A DNA stretch of 30,371 nucleotides from a virus. The stretch covers positions 1 to 30,371 of the IMG/VR virus record IMGVR_UViG_3300021964_000319, one strand, 5' to 3'. Made by a program: the position numbers and the translations under genes. This document shows, one piece after another, positions 2,751 to 18,480 of the stretch (position 1 is its first letter; each line of letters opens with the position of its first letter). The notes under the pieces were generated by a model. It did not search any database, was not told where the DNA came from, and was given only the letters and a program-made list of their open reading frames with translations.

Positions 2751-4127
2751 TTAGTCTTTTCCTCCGTTTCTGAACTTCTTGTACTTTTCTTGTAACGACT
2801 CTTGCTGTTTCTTTGCAGCGTTGTCATTAATTTCTTCTGCTGTTTCGCCCGTCGAGGGAAGAACATCAATCTTAATGTTGCTCGTATCCATGAAAATAGG
2901 GTAAACGATACCATCAGGTCCGTTCCTGTTTTTTGCTACAAAGATACGTCCTGTGTTATTATTCTTGTCTGTAATGGTTCTGGATAGAGTGAAGATGAGG
3001 TCCGCTACGAAGCATTTGTTGAAGGCTTCGCTAATTGATTCCATTGTAACCACTTCTGCGTTTAGTCCGCTGCGGTTAGTTTGGCTTGCTGTCCAGACGG
3101 GACACTCAAACTCTTGTGCCATTCCCCGAAGGTCTTCATAAATAGTCTCTAATTCGATGCGTTTCTCCTTGTAAGAAGAAATAGGTTGCAAAAGGTCACC
3201 ATAATCGACGCAAATTAAGTCAGGTTCAAAACCAGAGCGTCTTAGTTTTTCTAGGTGTTGTTTGAGTTTATTTACGTTAGCGGACTTTGTTGGGTATTCT
3301 TTTACAATAAGTTTTCCTTCAAGTTCTTTTACTTGGTCGTAAATTAAATCTTTGAAGGAATGTAAATCTTGAAGTTTTACTGATGTGATGCAACTGTCAA
3401 AGCGGCTGGCTACAACAGTGTCTTGAAGTTCAAGCGTATAATAAACTACATTTTTTCCTTCCTTGACAATTTGTGCTCCAAGATGCACAAGAGCCATAGA
3501 CTTTCCTGCACCCGTTGGAGCAATAACAACTCCCAACTCTCCGCGACCTAAGCCACCCTTTGTAATGTCATCGATAATCTTCCAGCCCGTGGTCATGGGG
3601 TTGCGTGAGCGTTTTAGGAAGCGCTCTTCAAAGTCAATAAGATAGTCATAACCGTGGTCGTTGTCTAAGCCAAGTTTCATGGCTTGGTTGATAACTTCTG
3701 AAATTTGATCAAAAGAAGAAGTTTTCAAAAGTCCAACGGACTTCATAATGGCTTCTTTTAGTTTTTGTTTCTTGCAAAAGTCAAGAGCAGTGACTTTGAC
3801 ATACTCTTCATCTTCGACTTGACTTGTTGCAACGATGCGAGCAAAGTAGTCCTTTACTTGCTTTTGTAGCACCTCTGACTCTTCTTCCATTTCAGTTTTA
3901 ATAATGGAAGCCATTATCTCAACAGAAGGGTGCTTCTCAAACTTCTGTCGATAGTTGGCTAAACGCTCATAGAATAGCCGAAGGTATTTTACTTCCAAGA
4001 AGTAAGGGTCAAACACGTCTGACATTTGGTCGAAGAACGACCTGTCATAAAACATACTTTGGACCAACTTCTCTTGGAAACTTTTACCGAACTTAGAAAA
4101 TGTTTCATTCTCGTAGTCTAGTTTCAT
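2751..4127 (-). CDS. Replicative DNA helicase, DnaB/T4 gp41-like
   Basis: A 458-residue hexameric helicase of the DnaB family that would unwind the fork ahead of the phage polymerase. The N-terminal half (about 1-165) is helical, as in the family's primase-interacting domain. The C-terminal RecA-like ATPase domain has Walker A APTGAGKS (203-210), the VYYTLEL helicase segment (about 225-232), Walker B-like DLICVDYGDLL (about 305-315) and the WTASQTNRSG sensor region. No primase gene is in the window. It starts 11 bases after the exonuclease stop with a GGAG ribosome binding site and ends immediately before the reductase ATG, so the three genes are clearly one operon. Size is close to T4 gp41. 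Confidence 0.93.
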   Translation of the reverse strand: MKLDYENETFSKFGKSFQEKLVQSMFYDRSFFDQMSDVFDPYFLEVKYLRLFYERLANYRQKFEKHPSVEIMASIIKTEMEEESEVLQKQVKDYFARIVATSQVEDEEYVKVTALDFCKKQKLKEAIMKSVGLLKTSSFDQISEVINQAMKLGLDNDHGYDYLIDFEERFLKRSRNPMTTGWKIIDDITKGGLGRGELGVVIAPTGAGKSMALVHLGAQIVKEGKNVVYYTLELQDTVVASRFDSCITSVKLQDLHSFKDLIYDQVKELEGKLIVKEYPTKSANVNKLKQHLEKLRRSGFEPDLICVDYGDLLQPISSYKEKRIELETIYEDLRGMAQEFECPVWTASQTNRSGLNAEVVTMESISEAFNKCFVADLIFTLSRTITDKNNNTGRIFVAKNRNGPDGIVYPIFMDTSNIKIDVLPSTGETAEEINDNAAKKQQESLQEKYKKFRNGGKD

Positions 4128-14364: not shown

Positions 14365-16539
14365 TTAGGATGATAATTGACCGTTCATAATTTTTACGGT
14401 CTCGGTGGCAAGGATTTTGCCGTCCAAGGTGAGATTGACCGTTACGGGCTGTGCAGAACCCCCACCGGCTGAACCGGCAGTAGTGCCACCAGTTGTTAGT
14501 TTAAACCCTGCATCAATTGCACCTCTTAACTCGCGTGCTTTAATGGTGTTAACCTTGTTAATAGCTGAGACTAAATTACCGACCTGAGTTGCGTAACCGC
14601 CAAGTCTTGCAACCGTGCCGACGCCAATTTTATTTCCTGCGTCGACTACTTTGTCAATACTCTCTGCCAAATTTAACGCCAGCAAGCCCATTGCATTGAG
14701 GATCGCGGCGACGGGATTAAAAGCGCTGGCGATTGTTATAGCGATTTTAGCGAGCGTTCCAAAGACACCTACGGATTTAGCACCTGCTTCAACAAGTGTT
14801 GCAAGACCGTTTGCCAACAATCCAACCGCCGCCACAAGAGCCGCAATGGGCGTGACTATTAATGCTACGCCTGCGCCAAACGTTAGAAGGCTTGTACCGG
14901 CGGCTGCAATGCCAGGGGCTGCCGCTGCACCGGCTGTGCCAGTTGCTGTAAGACCTTTTGCTGAGGCGAAGCCTGCGCCTGCTGCTGCGGGAGCGAAGGC
15001 GAGAAACGCCTGTGCTGCGCCCATAATACCCTCAGCGGCTGCAAGGAATCCTCCACCCATCCCTGCGGCAGCTTGACCTGCCATCTTACTTGTTGCGGCA
15101 AGGTTTTCGCCAAGTTCTTTTGAGGTTGCCATAAGAGCAGCAGCAGCAGCTTCTTGCCCCTTGAGAGCCTTTTGTTGTTCGACTGTTAGGTTTTGCAATT
15201 GTCCAGCTTGGTCTTTTGTCAAATCAACATCGGCTACTTTTACATCATTTGTTAGACCAATAATCTCATTAAACTTTAAACCGCCTGGGAGTGATTGTTC
15301 AATCAACCTTCTTTGTGCGTCAGTTAAATCGTTTAAGCGACCGCTGGCTTTAATTGCTTCTCTAATTGTATCGATGCGCTCTTGGTCGCTCATCATGTTT
15401 AATTCAATGGCATTAAGTTGTGTTCCAAGAACAATGTTTAGCTTTGTAGCTGCCTCTGCGGCACTTTCAAATGTGTCAAAGCCTTTAGCAATGTCTAATA
15501 GCTTACCGATTTCTACACCGGAAGCTTTTGAAATCTCTTTTAGTCTTCTAAATACTTCGATTGCCTTTGGACCAGCTTGACCTAAGCGGTCACTAAACTG
15601 AACAAATTGTTTTGTGGCTGTTCCTATTGGTTCTCCAAGACCCTTAGAGATGGCAACCAATGAGCCAAGCTTGTTGTTGGCTTCATCAACTGTCATACCC
15701 TGTTGGACGATTGCTTCATTTAGAACCTGAGTGGCTGAAGCTGTGTCGAGCCCTGCTTTGCTAGCTCTGGCAAGAGTCTCAACCATACCAGCGTCGAGCG
15801 CTTCACGGAGACGTGTGCCACCTTGCTCTTGAATTGTTTGTAGAGCGTTAATAAAATCCTGTGGAGCATTACCAGCGGCAATAAAATCTTTACTTATTGA
15901 CCGTACTGACTTTGATGCTTGATCGGCAGATAAGCCAAAAGCAACAAGACTTTTCTCGCCTTCTTGCACTAGATCGCTGTATTCGGCGGCACGACTAACA
16001 AAACCACCGACTGCGACGGCTGCGCCTTGCAAGCCTGCTGCCAAGCCCCTGCCCAAGCCTTTTTGTTTTGCGAGAAGGTTTGCGCCTTTGGAAAGAATTC
16101 TCGTGTAGGCGTTTGACTCGGCTGTTAAAAATCCAAACTGTTGAACGAGGTTTTCAGCTAGACCAAGGGCTTCTCTTTTAAGGTCGTTTTGAAGAGACTG
16201 TAACTCGTTCTGCCTTTCGGCTTGTTTTGTTAGTTGTTCTCCCTTTCTTACAAGCCTAGTTAGCCTTTTTTCTTCTTCTTCTGTTAGTTTATCCTTCTTT
16301 AAAAGAGCCTGGACCTGAGCTTGAGTTGAGTCAAGTATAAGTTGATTTTTTTCTGCTATAAACTCCGCGCTGTCTTGGTTTTCTTTAAGTAATCTTGCGC
16401 GGCGCTGAAGTTGAGAAATGTCTTTCGCCAAGAGGCGTTGAAGCTCCTCTTGCGTCTTTTTTGCGCGATCGGTCTGGTCGGCGCTTTTTTGAACCGCATC
16501 AGCGAATAATTGTGCTTGTTTTACTTCTTCTGGAGTCAT
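14365..16539 (-). CDS. Tail tape measure protein
   Basis: A 724-residue protein that sets tail length and threads the tube. The first 130 residues are a charged coiled coil rich in Q, K, E and L; the middle is helical with A-S-G rich repeats; residues about 480-620 are dominated by alanine, glycine and long hydrophobic stretches (for example FGAGVALIVTPIAALVAAVGLLANG, given here only as a landmark of a membrane-spanning segment near residue 570), which would insert into the host membrane; the C-terminus ends with a short beta-like segment (PVTVNLTLDGKIL). This layout and its place between the tube chaperone region and the baseplate proteins are typical. The ATG lacks a clear ribosome binding site. 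Confidence 0.88.
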   Translation of the reverse strand: MTPEEVKQAQLFADAVQKSADQTDRAKKTQEELQRLLAKDISQLQRRARLLKENQDSAEFIAEKNQLILDSTQAQVQALLKKDKLTEEEEKRLTRLVRKGEQLTKQAERQNELQSLQNDLKREALGLAENLVQQFGFLTAESNAYTRILSKGANLLAKQKGLGRGLAAGLQGAAVAVGGFVSRAAEYSDLVQEGEKSLVAFGLSADQASKSVRSISKDFIAAGNAPQDFINALQTIQEQGGTRLREALDAGMVETLARASKAGLDTASATQVLNEAIVQQGMTVDEANNKLGSLVAISKGLGEPIGTATKQFVQFSDRLGQAGPKAIEVFRRLKEISKASGVEIGKLLDIAKGFDTFESAAEAATKLNIVLGTQLNAIELNMMSDQERIDTIREAIKASGRLNDLTDAQRRLIEQSLPGGLKFNEIIGLTNDVKVADVDLTKDQAGQLQNLTVEQQKALKGQEAAAAALMATSKELGENLAATSKMAGQAAAGMGGGFLAAAEGIMGAAQAFLAFAPAAAGAGFASAKGLTATGTAGAAAAPGIAAAGTSLLTFGAGVALIVTPIAALVAAVGLLANGLATLVEAGAKSVGVFGTLAKIAITIASAFNPVAAILNAMGLLALNLAESIDKVVDAGNKIGVGTVARLGGYATQVGNLVSAINKVNTIKARELRGAIDAGFKLTTGGTTAGSAGGGSAQPVTVNLTLDGKILATETVKIMNGQLSS

Positions 16540-16547
16540 AACTTAAA

Positions 16548-16862
16548 TTACTTAATTGGGTATTTAATCCCGGTTGCTCTTTCAAAGTTCTTAACAGCTT
16601 GGTTTAGTCTGGTTGAGCTAGCGTGTGTTCTTGGGTCGAGAAGTCCGTATCTTTTAGCAGCATCCATGTGTCTGCGCTCGTGACGAAGTGTGTCCATAAA
16701 GGTTCTAATTTGAGTTGGTGTGCCACGAAGCAAATAGTTTGAACCCATTTGTAGTCCTGGGAATCCCATAAGGTCTAGCATGTGTCGCATCTGTGCGCCA
16801 AATGCTCCTAGCCAAGATTCATCGACTCTTTTCTCGTTTAGGTTGATAACTGTTTTTTCCAT
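16548..16862 (-). CDS. Small protein with HExxH motif upstream of the tape measure
   Basis: A 104-residue protein of unknown function. I start at ATG 16862 because GAGGTG lies 6 bases upstream; an in-frame GTG at 16871 is part of that ribosome binding site. It contains HERRH at residues 61-65, which has the form of the zinc metalloprotease HExxH motif inside a predicted helix (TLRHERRHMDAAKRYG), with H80 as a possible third ligand. The flanks are basic. Position between the gp26-like protein and the tape measure gene suggests tail assembly. The motif may be coincidental, so peptidase activity is a hypothesis only. Confidence 0.75.
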   Translation of the reverse strand: MEKTVINLNEKRVDESWLGAFGAQMRHMLDLMGFPGLQMGSNYLLRGTPTQIRTFMDTLRHERRHMDAAKRYGLLDPRTHASSTRLNQAVKNFERATGIKYPIK

Positions 16863-16881
16863 AATAAACACCTCGCTAAAT

Positions 16882-16892: not shown

Positions 16893-16930
16893 AAAAGAAA
16901 AAGTTCCTCCCGTTATCTACCGAAGGAACT
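16893..16930 (-). terminator. Hairpin terminator after the gp26-like extension
   Basis: AGTTCCT (16930-16924) pairs with AGGAACT (16908-16902) on the minus strand around a 15-base loop, followed by TTTTCTTTT. The stop codon of the frameshift extension (16915-16913) lies in the loop. The stem is only 7 pairs, so its strength is moderate. Confidence 0.5.
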
Positions 16931-17119
16931 CCCTCTTGAACTTTTATTTGCTTTTTCGATTGCCTCGTTTTTTCTTTCGATTTCTTTTATTAAACGATTG
17001 GCAAAATACTCTCTCATTTTTACCGGGAAGTTGTAAGCTTCTATAAAACTTATGCCCCCGTAATAAACAAGGTAAAAAATAGTGTCGTAAGCCGCTTTGC
17101 CGTATTCATCAGACAGACC
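16913..17119 (-). CDS. Frameshift-encoded C-terminal extension of the gp26-like protein
   Basis: An open frame of 68 codons that begins inside the last codons of the gp26-like gene and has no ATG, GTG or TTG before its main body; an in-frame TGA lies just upstream (about 17136). The sequence GLSDEYGKAAYDTIFYLVYYG is followed by a helix-forming segment (ISFIEAYNFPVKMREYFANR, then KEIERKNEAIEKA) that looks like the extensions of tail assembly chaperones. A run of seven T (17126-17120) lets the ribosome slip +1 or -2 at TTT TGG into this frame, giving a fusion of about 346 residues. An internal ATG in VKMREYF could yield a 33-residue fragment instead, but has no good ribosome binding site. Expression by frameshift is inferred, not shown. 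Confidence 0.55.
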   Translation of the reverse strand, partial: GLSDEYGKAAYDTIFYLVYYGGISFIEAYNFPVKMREYFANRLIKEIERKNEAIEKANKSSRGSSFGR

Positions 17120-17954
17120 AAAAAAAGTCTGCCGTCATCGGCAAATTGACCTCCTGATGTGCGGAACAACTGTTGCAGGTAAATGAAACATTTGTATTTA
17201 AATCTGGGCTCACAAACTCATAAACCTTTCTCAAGTACCTGCAATCAAGTGCTGGTAGGTTTTGTAAGCAAAGCTTTATTTGTACCCTGTCTGTAACACC
17301 GTTAATAGAAACAGTCATCATTTCCAACTGGTGCTGTAGCTTATCTTGTGGAAGTTTGTGCTCTGCTCTTTTTCTTGAAGCTTGAACAAGATTATTTTCG
17401 TCCTCTCCGGTTAAAAGCCTCAACTCAAATTGAAACTTTGTTCTTGGAGTTGTTGTCAAGAAAGTGCCGTTATCTGTTTCGGTAACAAGTTCTTCTGCTT
17501 CCTTTTGCTGTTTGTTCTCCAAAGCTGAAAGGTCGAAAGTGTGGTCTTGTGCTGTACCGCAGCTTGAGCAGGAAACTCTTGCTGGATACTCTGCTCCTAG
17601 TCCTGCAATTCTTGTGGCGAACAAGATGGCGTTTTTATCGCCAATAAGTAAATCATCTATTCTAATTGATTTATCTACTATAACACTTTGCAGTAGTTTG
17701 TCAATGACAACTCCATTTTTAAGATAATTCTCGTTCATAAGAATGTCTTCTTCTTTTGCTGTCATTACTTTTATTTCTACTTTCTCCACACCAAATAGAG
17801 AACTACCATCGGGATAGTATTTACCCCCCGAAGGTAGTTCTACAAATTCTGTTGGTGATGGAAAATTAAGAATCGAACTCGCTGCTGCCGGTGGCGTAGC
17901 GCCAATCGGCTGACTTACATCAGGCTGTAAGCCAAGTCTATCTTCATTTCTCAT
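17109..17954 (-). CDS. T4 gp26-like baseplate/tail assembly protein
   Basis: A 281-residue protein of the T4 baseplate family to which gp26 belongs. The signature FVELPSGGKYYPDG (37-50), then IKVMTAKEEDILMNENYLKNG (61-81) and DKLLQSVIVDKSI (85-97), and the aromatic end MTADFFW are as in that family. Two CxxC pairs (C129/C132 and C260/C263) suggest a zinc ribbon formed across the protein. In T4 gp26 helps build the hub without being part of the virion, and this gene sits where tail assembly chaperones usually sit, before the tape measure. The ATG has GAGG upstream. The reading frame continues after a T7 slip site into a further 68 codons. Confidence 0.85.
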   Translation of the reverse strand: MRNEDRLGLQPDVSQPIGATPPAAASSILNFPSPTEFVELPSGGKYYPDGSSLFGVEKVEIKVMTAKEEDILMNENYLKNGVVIDKLLQSVIVDKSIRIDDLLIGDKNAILFATRIAGLGAEYPARVSCSSCGTAQDHTFDLSALENKQQKEAEELVTETDNGTFLTTTPRTKFQFELRLLTGEDENNLVQASRKRAEHKLPQDKLQHQLEMMTVSINGVTDRVQIKLCLQNLPALDCRYLRKVYEFVSPDLNTNVSFTCNSCSAHQEVNLPMTADFFWSV

Positions 17955-17970
17955 AATACCTCTTTTTTAA

Positions 17971-18480
17971 TTAAGCGCCAGCCTTGTACTCTGCCCAATC
18001 GTATGCCATGTCAACTGAAACTTCGATTAGACCCTCGTCAGAGTATCCGTGCTGACCGAAGTCGATGTTTGTGATAAAGGCGTTGGTTAGTGTCCAAGAA
18101 CCAATTTGGGTGCCGTTTGTATCAATCTGGCTAATAATAACATTGCCTACTGCTGACGCGGCGTTACGCTTTGAAAGAGTTGCTAGCTGGTTAGAATTAA
18201 CAGGCTTGTTAATGCCAATAGCAGCAAATAGCGATGTTAAATTTTGAGCAACAGATTTTGAACCAACAACGTCGTAGATAGTAAACTGCACAGGAGACCA
18301 GCTAACCTTTCCAGGGTAGTAAAACTTGTATTGGGTGTAATCTGCCTCTAGAGTTCCTACCTCTAGCACTGGTAGCTTTGCTGACTTGATTAGAAATGAG
18401 TCAGCAATTGTACCCATCGTAACGGTGTACTGATAACTCTTTTTAGGTTCTAGTTCGGCTGAATTCCAAAAATTTGCCAT
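17971..18480 (-). CDS. gp19: Tail tube protein, T4 gp19-like
   Basis: Monomer of the inner tail tube. At 169 residues it is close to T4 gp19, and the sequence MANFWNSAELEPKKSYQYTV, DSFLIKSAKLP, YYPGKVSWSPVQFTIYD and the C-terminal strand GYSDEGLIEVSVDMAYDWAEY follow the gp19/Hcp-like two-sheet layout. It comes directly after the sheath gene with AGGAG upstream of the ATG, the usual sheath-tube order. No separate late element is present between the two, so sheath and tube are probably co-transcribed. Confidence 0.92.
   Translation of the reverse strand: MANFWNSAELEPKKSYQYTVTMGTIADSFLIKSAKLPVLEVGTLEADYTQYKFYYPGKVSWSPVQFTIYDVVGSKSVAQNLTSLFAAIGINKPVNSNQLATLSKRNAASAVGNVIISQIDTNGTQIGSWTLTNAFITNIDFGQHGYSDEGLIEVSVDMAYDWAEYKAGA

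What the first reader, a model, noticed from the sequence alone, without database searches (positions are those of the whole stretch)
16913..17126. Probable +1/-2 programmed frameshift in the gene before the tape measure
The gp26-like gene ends with GAC TTTTTTT GG and stops seven codons later. The +1 frame (same as -2) is open for 68 codons after the T run, has no start codon, has a stop just upstream, and encodes a helical segment of the sort found in tail assembly chaperone extensions. A TTT codon in the P site can re-pair with TTT either one base forward or two back. An AGGAGG lies about 26 bases upstream. Known: lambda G/GT and many tail phages use -1 shifts, Mu uses -2, always just before the tape measure; T4-like phages are not usually listed.
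Basis: partly seen in the sequence, partly recalled or inferred. Interest (0 to 1): 0.75.

Follow-up and report, generated by a model that had tools for sequence, protein, structure and literature searches.

The report
Frameshifted tail chaperone in T4-like phage
In this T4-like phage some ribosomes appear to skip one base near the end of a tail-building helper gene and so add a helical end piece, and the added piece is kept across many related phages, some of which reach it by slipping backwards instead.

Summary
On the minus strand the gp26-like gene (17954-17109) ends GAC TTT TTT TGG TCT GTC TGA; the +1 (= -2) frame stays open for 68 codons, with no ATG/GTG/TTG in the first 34. The same extension occurs in all 68 viral relatives with a readable gene end, in 10 named phage records and in 9 of 10 genome contigs. 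It is best read as a programmed frameshift making the long form of a tail assembly chaperone. The shift is most likely +1 at UUU-Y or CUU-U: such a re-pairing exists in 78 of 78 records, while -2 fails in at least four. The base before TTT TTT is never T in the +1 class (0 of 37) and always T in the -1 class. In cyanophages (80 of 80 loci) and jumbo T4-like phages a homologous extension is reached by -1 shifting at U_UUU_UUY; T4 gp51 holds both parts in one gene beside the short gp26. The T4 arrangement, and -1 poly-T sites in T4-like phages, are already in print (Vladimirov 2022, seen only through citing papers). My searches found no report of the +1 form at this locus. Expression is not shown.

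The parts
17109..17954 (-). gp26-like short form (TAC-N), 281 aa
   Evidence: PF12322 54.7 bits, cut-off 24.5; phrog_150 E 4.3e-18
17120..17126 (-). T7 run, proposed +1 shift site (0 frame GAC TTT TTT TGG)
16913..17119 (-). +1-frame extension (68 codons, GLSDEY...SFGR, then stop)
   Evidence: open in all relatives read; coding-like variation; helices
17135..17137 (-). +1-frame stop TGA, upstream limit of the shift window
17109..17111 (-). 0-frame stop TGA
17150..17155 (-). AGGAGG, constrained at nucleotide level in relatives
17971..18480 (-). tail tube gene upstream (context)
   Evidence: phrog_4542 E 9.1e-16
14365..16539 (-). putative tape measure gene (context)
   Evidence: phrog_991 E 0.0035; gene order as in annotated relatives

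Best explanation
The locus encodes a two-form tail assembly chaperone of a T4-like phage. Most ribosomes make the short form (gp26-like, TAC-N). A minority slip +1 when peptidyl-tRNA-Phe on UUU re-pairs one base forward (UUU-U here; UUU-C or CUU-U in relatives), skip one base, and make the long form with a helical C-terminal domain (TAC-NC), much as lambda makes G and GT by a -1 shift. Shown here: the conserved frame, the conserved and direction-specific site, and homology of the extension to the -1-encoded extensions of jumbo phages and cyanophages. Homology to the C-terminus of T4 gp51 is shown through the cyanophages and only weakly directly. Inferred: that the shift happens, that it is translational, its efficiency, and the chaperone role.
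For: Open +1 frame in 68 of 68 viral loci read, 10 of 24 named phage records (13 others use -1, 1 neither) and 9 of 10 genome contigs. UUU-Y or CUU-U +1 option in 78 of 78 +1-class records; no -2 option in L076, L081, L084, L085 and none near the site in L079. N/D/S codons before TTT TTT end in C 28 times and in T never, although T-ending ones are commoner elsewhere in these genes. Profiles of joined proteins: +1 class against jumbo -1 class E 7e-29, against cyanophages 1e-10; cyanophages against T4 gp51 1.5e-11 across the junction. T4 gp51 is PF12322 plus the extension domain. The top two of 892 chains re-aligned to the model are YqbN (3KLU) and HK97 tail assembly chaperone (2OB9). UUU_Ynn is known as +1-prone in bacteria (PMC5009743).
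Against: No expression data. UUU-Y is a common string, so something more must make this one productive; no conserved RNA structure was found around it, and AGGAGG at 22-25 nt is farther upstream than the stimulators known to me (recalled). The structural matches have Z 5.3 and 5.7, which the tool calls middling, and Foldseek gave no PDB match below E 0.001. The direct match of +1-class fusions to gp51 is weak (E 0.0085). One genome contig, L202, shows no extension under table 11.
Confidence: 0.86

Rival explanations
1. The shift is -2: peptidyl-tRNA-Phe on the second UUU re-pairs two bases back, as in phage Mu (recalled), giving the same extension with one more Phe.
For: In the window and most TTT TTT TGG relatives the -2 re-pairing on T2-T4 is perfect; the product frame is identical.
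Against: No -2 re-pairing is possible in GXN1, BRock, LuckySocke and pSt2308, none near the site in LR756508, and a G-U first pair is needed in the TTT CTT group, while +1 is available in all 78.
Confidence: 0.08
2. RNA polymerase slips on the T7 run and the extension is read from edited transcripts.
For: A run of 7 T is present in the window and most relatives.
Against: Close and distant relatives with the same extension have interrupted runs (TTTCTTT, CTTTTC, CTGTTTCRS).
Confidence: 0.04
3. The extension is a separate overlapping gene, translated from its own start or by re-initiation after the gp26 stop.
For: S-SCSM1 has an ATG of its own; 5 of 33 dereplicated +1 loci have an ATG, and 13 of 33 some ATG/GTG/TTG, in the open frame before extension codon 9; many cyanophages have an ATG after the stop.
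Against: The window has no ATG/GTG/TTG before extension codon 35; no start before codon 9 in 20 of 33 loci; the site bases are constrained by direction, which a separate gene does not explain; T4 gp51 has both parts in one protein.
Confidence: 0.02

Closest known systems
T4 gp26/gp51 as tail assembly chaperones of T4-like phages (Vladimirov, Gautam and Davidson 2022; title and citing passages only)
   Same: Same protein family (PF12322); gp51 holds the same two parts; both are listed as hub assembly chaperones in PMC3004832.
   Different: T4 has two genes, a short one and a fused one, instead of one shifted gene; for other T4-like phages poly-T -1 signals are cited, whereas this clade reads +1.
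Cyanophage and jumbo T4-like phages with the -1 form
   Same: Homologous gp26 part and extension; joined profiles match end to end.
   Different: -1 at U_UUU_UUY, always with T before the run; the 38 cyanophage sequences tested share a covarying 5-bp hairpin about 10 nt downstream.
Lambda G/GT
   Same: Short major and long minor form of a chaperone made by a shift near the end of the gene before the tape measure (PMC5009743).
   Different: -1 shift; sequence relation not tested; ratio unknown here.
HSTV-2 (haloarchaeal myovirus) tail gene
   Same: Very likely a +1 shift in the tail assembly position (PMC5009743).
   Different: Archaeal virus; sequence relation not tested.
RF2 and yopN-tyeA +1 sites
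   Same: CUU_U and UUU_Y strings (PMC5009743).
   Different: RF2 has a stop codon behind the shift codon and, as recalled, a close Shine-Dalgarno; neither is present here.

Membership tests
T4_baseplate (PF12322), gp26 family | profile match over the curated cut-off | tested here: met
   54.7 bits against 24.5; 21 of 23 relatives match at E <= 0.01
Tail assembly chaperone with frameshifted long form | conserved ORF in another frame overlapping the end of the upstream ORF, without need of a start codon | tested here: met
Tail assembly chaperone with frameshifted long form | gene lies between the tail tube and tape measure genes | tested here: met
   tube 17971-18480, weakly identified tape measure 14365-16539; same order with annotated tape measure genes in Flavobacterium immuto and Listeria LIS04
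Tail assembly chaperone with frameshifted long form | fold of the short form like solved chaperones | tested here: inconclusive
   3KLU Z 5.7 and 2OB9 Z 5.3 are the top two of 892 chains, but Z is under 8 and Foldseek gave no E below 0.001
Tail assembly chaperone with frameshifted long form | both forms made, absent from the virion, bind tape measure and tube proteins | not testable with these tools
   needs an isolate or an expression system
T4 gp51 C-terminal domain | extension homologous to the gp51 C-terminus | tested here: inconclusive
   clear for the cyanophage extension (phrog_634 E 3.3e-26); for the +1 clade only through cyanophage and jumbo forms; direct E 0.084 for extensions, 0.0085 for fusions
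-1 frameshift at X_XXY_YYZ | T before TTT TTY in the 0 frame and an open -1 frame into the extension | tested here: not met
   the site reads GAC TTT TTT TGG and the -1 frame closes after 23 codons
DUF6760 (PF20546) | profile match over the curated cut-off of 27 bits | tested here: not met
   16 bits, E 0.012; a weak lead only

The most novel reading that the evidence does not exclude
One homologous chaperone locus of the T4 superfamily is kept as a two-form system by three decoding solutions: -1 slippage at U_UUU_UUY, +1 slippage at UUU_Y or CUU_U, and in T4 a second gene with the fusion written out. Each shifting lineage has purged the other direction's signal through the base before the T run, and the +1 lineage carries a selected AGGAGG at 22-25 nt that acts as a stimulator from an unusually long distance.
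Probability: 0.4. Interest if true: 0.75.

Novelty: new variant of a known kind. Interest (0 to 1): 0.6.

Why it matters
A 2016 review says that G/GT-type shifting is conserved in long-tailed phages 'except T4' (PMC5009743), and a 2022 paper, seen only through citations, explained T4 by a short gene plus a fused gene. The data here add that one large part of the T4 superfamily appears to make the long form by +1 shifting and another by -1 shifting at an equivalent place. That is a natural series for asking how shift direction is set and how it changes in evolution. It also means that many 'baseplate hub' and 'gp51' annotations in these phages are incomplete: the long form is missing, or its end is written as a separate short gene.

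Tried and rejected
Separate gene for LR756511 (L080): my first reading of its TAATG overlap was dropped, because GGT TTT TTC lies upstream and the -1 frame is open from there to the end of the extension.

Conserved RNA structure in the +1 class: fold_alignment of 22 sequences predicted no pairs. The hairpin around the window's T run (121-nt fold z -3.2) is not kept in relatives such as L006 and L010. A pairing of upstream GGCGT with downstream ACGCC across the site was noticed in some loci and is not general.

AGGAGG as an initiation signal for the extension: in the L010 group no ATG/GTG/TTG in the extension frame follows it.

First genome-contig scan with SP-15 gp26: 30 pattern matches, no relative. 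Viral-contig scan with PBECO4 gp26: only 3 loci. DUF6760: below cut-off, and a paper search for the name gave 0. PDB by sequence profile: only one match, E 0.5, a ribosomal protein. A link to extracellular contractile injection systems was considered from recall and not established.

Rows dropped or not read: 4 of 72 loci (L009, L016, L049, L060) had no readable gene end and were left out; 4 of 68 extensions are cut by a contig end (L003, L007, L013, L025); L203 is partial. L001 is identical to the window protein and so is not independent. I read 8 of 17 records, 1 new of 7, 2 new of 8, 11 of 63, 1 new of 9, and 2 besides T4 of 1262. The 80 cyanophage loci are the best-kept 80 of 598; the hairpin was tested on 38 of those 80.

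Full report
What is there. The window is a fragment of a T4-like phage: gp23 capsid (E 1.8e-73), S77 prohead protease and gp32-like protein, UvsX-like recombinase and DnaB-like helicase, tail sheath and tube. G000 is a virus record of 30371 bases, that is, the window itself. The gene in question reads right to left, 17954-17109, and belongs to PF12322. Its end reads GAC TTT TTT TGG TCT GTC TGA. From the T run the +1 frame reads TTT TTT GGT CTG TCT GAT GAA TAC and is open to 16916.

Is it conserved. A scan of viral contigs gave 72 loci, of which 68 had a readable gene end. In all 68 the +1 frame runs past the 0-frame stop, and in all 68 one of four site types is present: TTT TTT TGG, TTT CTT TGG, TTT CTT TAC or CTT TTC TAC. 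Most extensions begin GL[ST]xxY and have a later PxxxR motif. For 33 dereplicated complete loci, first-order Markov randomisations of each region reach the observed open length in 0 to 2.25% of cases (median 0.1%), and the -1 frame closes after a median of 2 codons. In the extension, third positions of +1-frame codons vary two to three and a half times more than the first two in the 86-aa and 66-aa groups. In 20 of these 33 loci no ATG, GTG or TTG lies in the open extension frame before its ninth codon; in 28 of 33 no ATG does.

How far it reaches. I read 24 named phage records besides T4. Ten have the extension in the +1 frame: Flavobacterium immuto, Microcystis Mel-JY01, Streptococcus GXN1, Listeria LIS04, Bacillus SP-15, three Streptomyces phages, LR756508 and Rhodothermus RM378. 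Thirteen have it in the -1 frame at T TTT TTY: PAC2, Phosso, XaC1, CBB, PHA46, Vibrio 2.275, SCTP-2, XacN1, RAS14, PBECO4, RaK2, Bakedbeans and LR756511. One, S-SCSM1, has an 11-nt insertion after the stop and an ATG of its own. Of 80 cyanophage contigs, all 80 keep U_UUU_UUC and have the -1 frame as the longer open one; a few are cut by the contig end. Of ten genome contigs with a readable gene end, nine have the +1 extension.

Which direction. For each of 78 +1-class records (68 viral loci and 10 named) I listed every position where a P-site tRNA could re-pair one base forward or two back within the open overlap, allowing one G-U pair and no mismatch. A UUU-Y or CUU-U +1 option exists in all 78. 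No -2 option exists in GXN1, BRock, LuckySocke or pSt2308, and none near the site in LR756508. +1 is therefore the common denominator, although for the window alone -2 pairs equally well. [quoted passage not shown]

A direction-specific signature. A -1 shift at U_UUU_UUY needs a T before the run. In the -1 class it is always there: 76 of 76 dereplicated cyanophage loci, with TCA never used although it is the second commonest Ser codon in these genes, and all 14 other loci listed. In the +1 class with TTT TTT sites it is never there: 0 of 37 dereplicated loci. For Asn, Asp and Ser(AGY) codons the C-ending form is used 28 of 28 times, although T-ending forms are commoner elsewhere in the same genes. 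The product of usages is 2.7e-14, which overstates the case because the loci are related. The +1 lineage thus seems to be kept from slipping -1.

Upstream element. AGGAGG, or GGAGG in two loci, lies 22 to 25 nt before the run. Where the residues [QVE]E[GV] are present (24 of 35 dereplicated loci) Glu is GAG in 24 of 24, against 61 of 454 elsewhere in the genes, and the residue before it is CAG in 22 and GTG in 2; CAG is 38 of 219 Gln codons elsewhere. The other 11 of 35 lack the motif. The constraint looks nucleotide-level. What it does is open: the distance is longer than I recall for known stimulators, and no start codon in the extension frame follows it in the L010 group.

What the extension is. 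Profiles of the joined proteins match: +1 class with jumbo -1 class, E 7e-29; +1 class with cyanophages, 1e-10; cyanophages with T4 gp51, 1.5e-11, co-linear across the junction. T4 gp51 is itself a PF12322 protein (E 3.9e-52, residues 1-201) followed by the extension domain (phrog_634), and it resembles T4 gp26 at BLASTP E 2e-6. The direct +1-class to gp51 match is weak (0.0085). A 2010 genome comparison noted that cyanophage and marine vibriophage gp51 lack the first about 200 residues but keep the C-terminus; the word frameshift does not occur in it (PMC3037559, passages). A -1 shift from gp26 would explain that observation.

Tree. In a quick maximum-likelihood tree of 57 gp26 parts the 27-row window clade is all +1 (SH-aLRT 95), the jumbo clade of 11 is all -1 (93), and cyanophages, Bakedbeans and the T4 proteins fall together (99). 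Firmicute and Streptomyces +1 groups are not resolved against these. The least number of changes is three over four labels, one of them the single row L080, which was labelled 'separate' when the tree was built and is now read as -1. The order of events is not settled.

Structure. The short form is predicted with mean pLDDT 85.4. Re-alignment of Foldseek's candidates puts YqbN (3KLU, Z 5.7, residues 161-250) and the HK97 tail assembly chaperone (2OB9, Z 5.3, residues 33-120) first and second of 892 chains. That YqbN is the same kind of chaperone is recalled. These Z values are in the range that the tool calls middling. In the joined protein the extension forms helices 282-299, 303-307 and 311-343, at block pLDDT 79-94 apart from the last residues. 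Among predicted viral proteins the best matches include gp26-like baseplate hub proteins such as that of SP-15.

What is known. The review lists T4 as the exception to G/GT shifting. Vladimirov and colleagues (Virology 2022) identified the T4-like chaperone genes; the paper is not held. One citing paper says that some T4-like phages carry a short gene and a longer fusion gene (PMC10885494, passage); another says that poly-T -1 signals are known in TAC-N genes of T4-like phages (PMC12846349, passages). In the listings of the searches I saw no paper describing a +1 shift at this locus; that is a statement about these searches only.

Conclusion. The kind of system is known; the +1 form and the direction-specific avoidance of the other signal are, as far as my searches go, new.

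Noticed in passing
L099-L178, about 10 nt after U_UUU_UUC: A 5-bp palindrome (GGTCC ATAT GGACC and variants), tested on 38 of the 80 cyanophage loci: all 5 pairs show changes on both sides, 85.8% of cells paired against 52% when slid by one column. Candidate -1 stimulator hairpin; it often also contains an ATG in the extension frame.
   Followed up: partly
L097 (S-SCSM1) after position 3185: An 11-nt insertion just after the gp26 stop puts the extension out of the -1 frame; here the extension may really be a separate gene, or the record may hold an error.
   Followed up: no
window 16548-16871, minus strand: 107-aa ORF with GTG start between the chaperone extension and the putative tape measure gene, no confident family match; L193 has a 115-aa ORF at the same place.
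   Followed up: no
window 17114-17131, minus strand: The T run sits in the loop of a CAGAC...GTCTG hairpin; the 121-nt region folds better than all 200 shuffles (z -3.2), but the hairpin is not kept in relatives.
   Followed up: partly
L054-L072, about 20-30 nt before the shift site: Loci of this group carry a second run of nine Ts in the 0 frame inside the +1-open overlap, a possible extra slip site.
   Followed up: no
L193 (CP070664.1, WOR-3 bacterium chromosome): A gp26-like gene with +1 extension, between large ORFs in the same order as the window's sheath, tube and tape measure genes, lies in a 2.8-Mb bacterial MAG record; prophage, injection system or misbinned phage is not settled.
   Followed up: no
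L202 (Prevotellaceae contig OMRP01000002.1, 399 kb): gp26-like gene without a visible extension in either frame under table 11; other genetic codes were not tried.
   Followed up: no
window 16925-17092, minus strand: Weak match of the extension to Pfam DUF6760 (E 0.012 in Pfam-A, below cut-off).
   Followed up: partly
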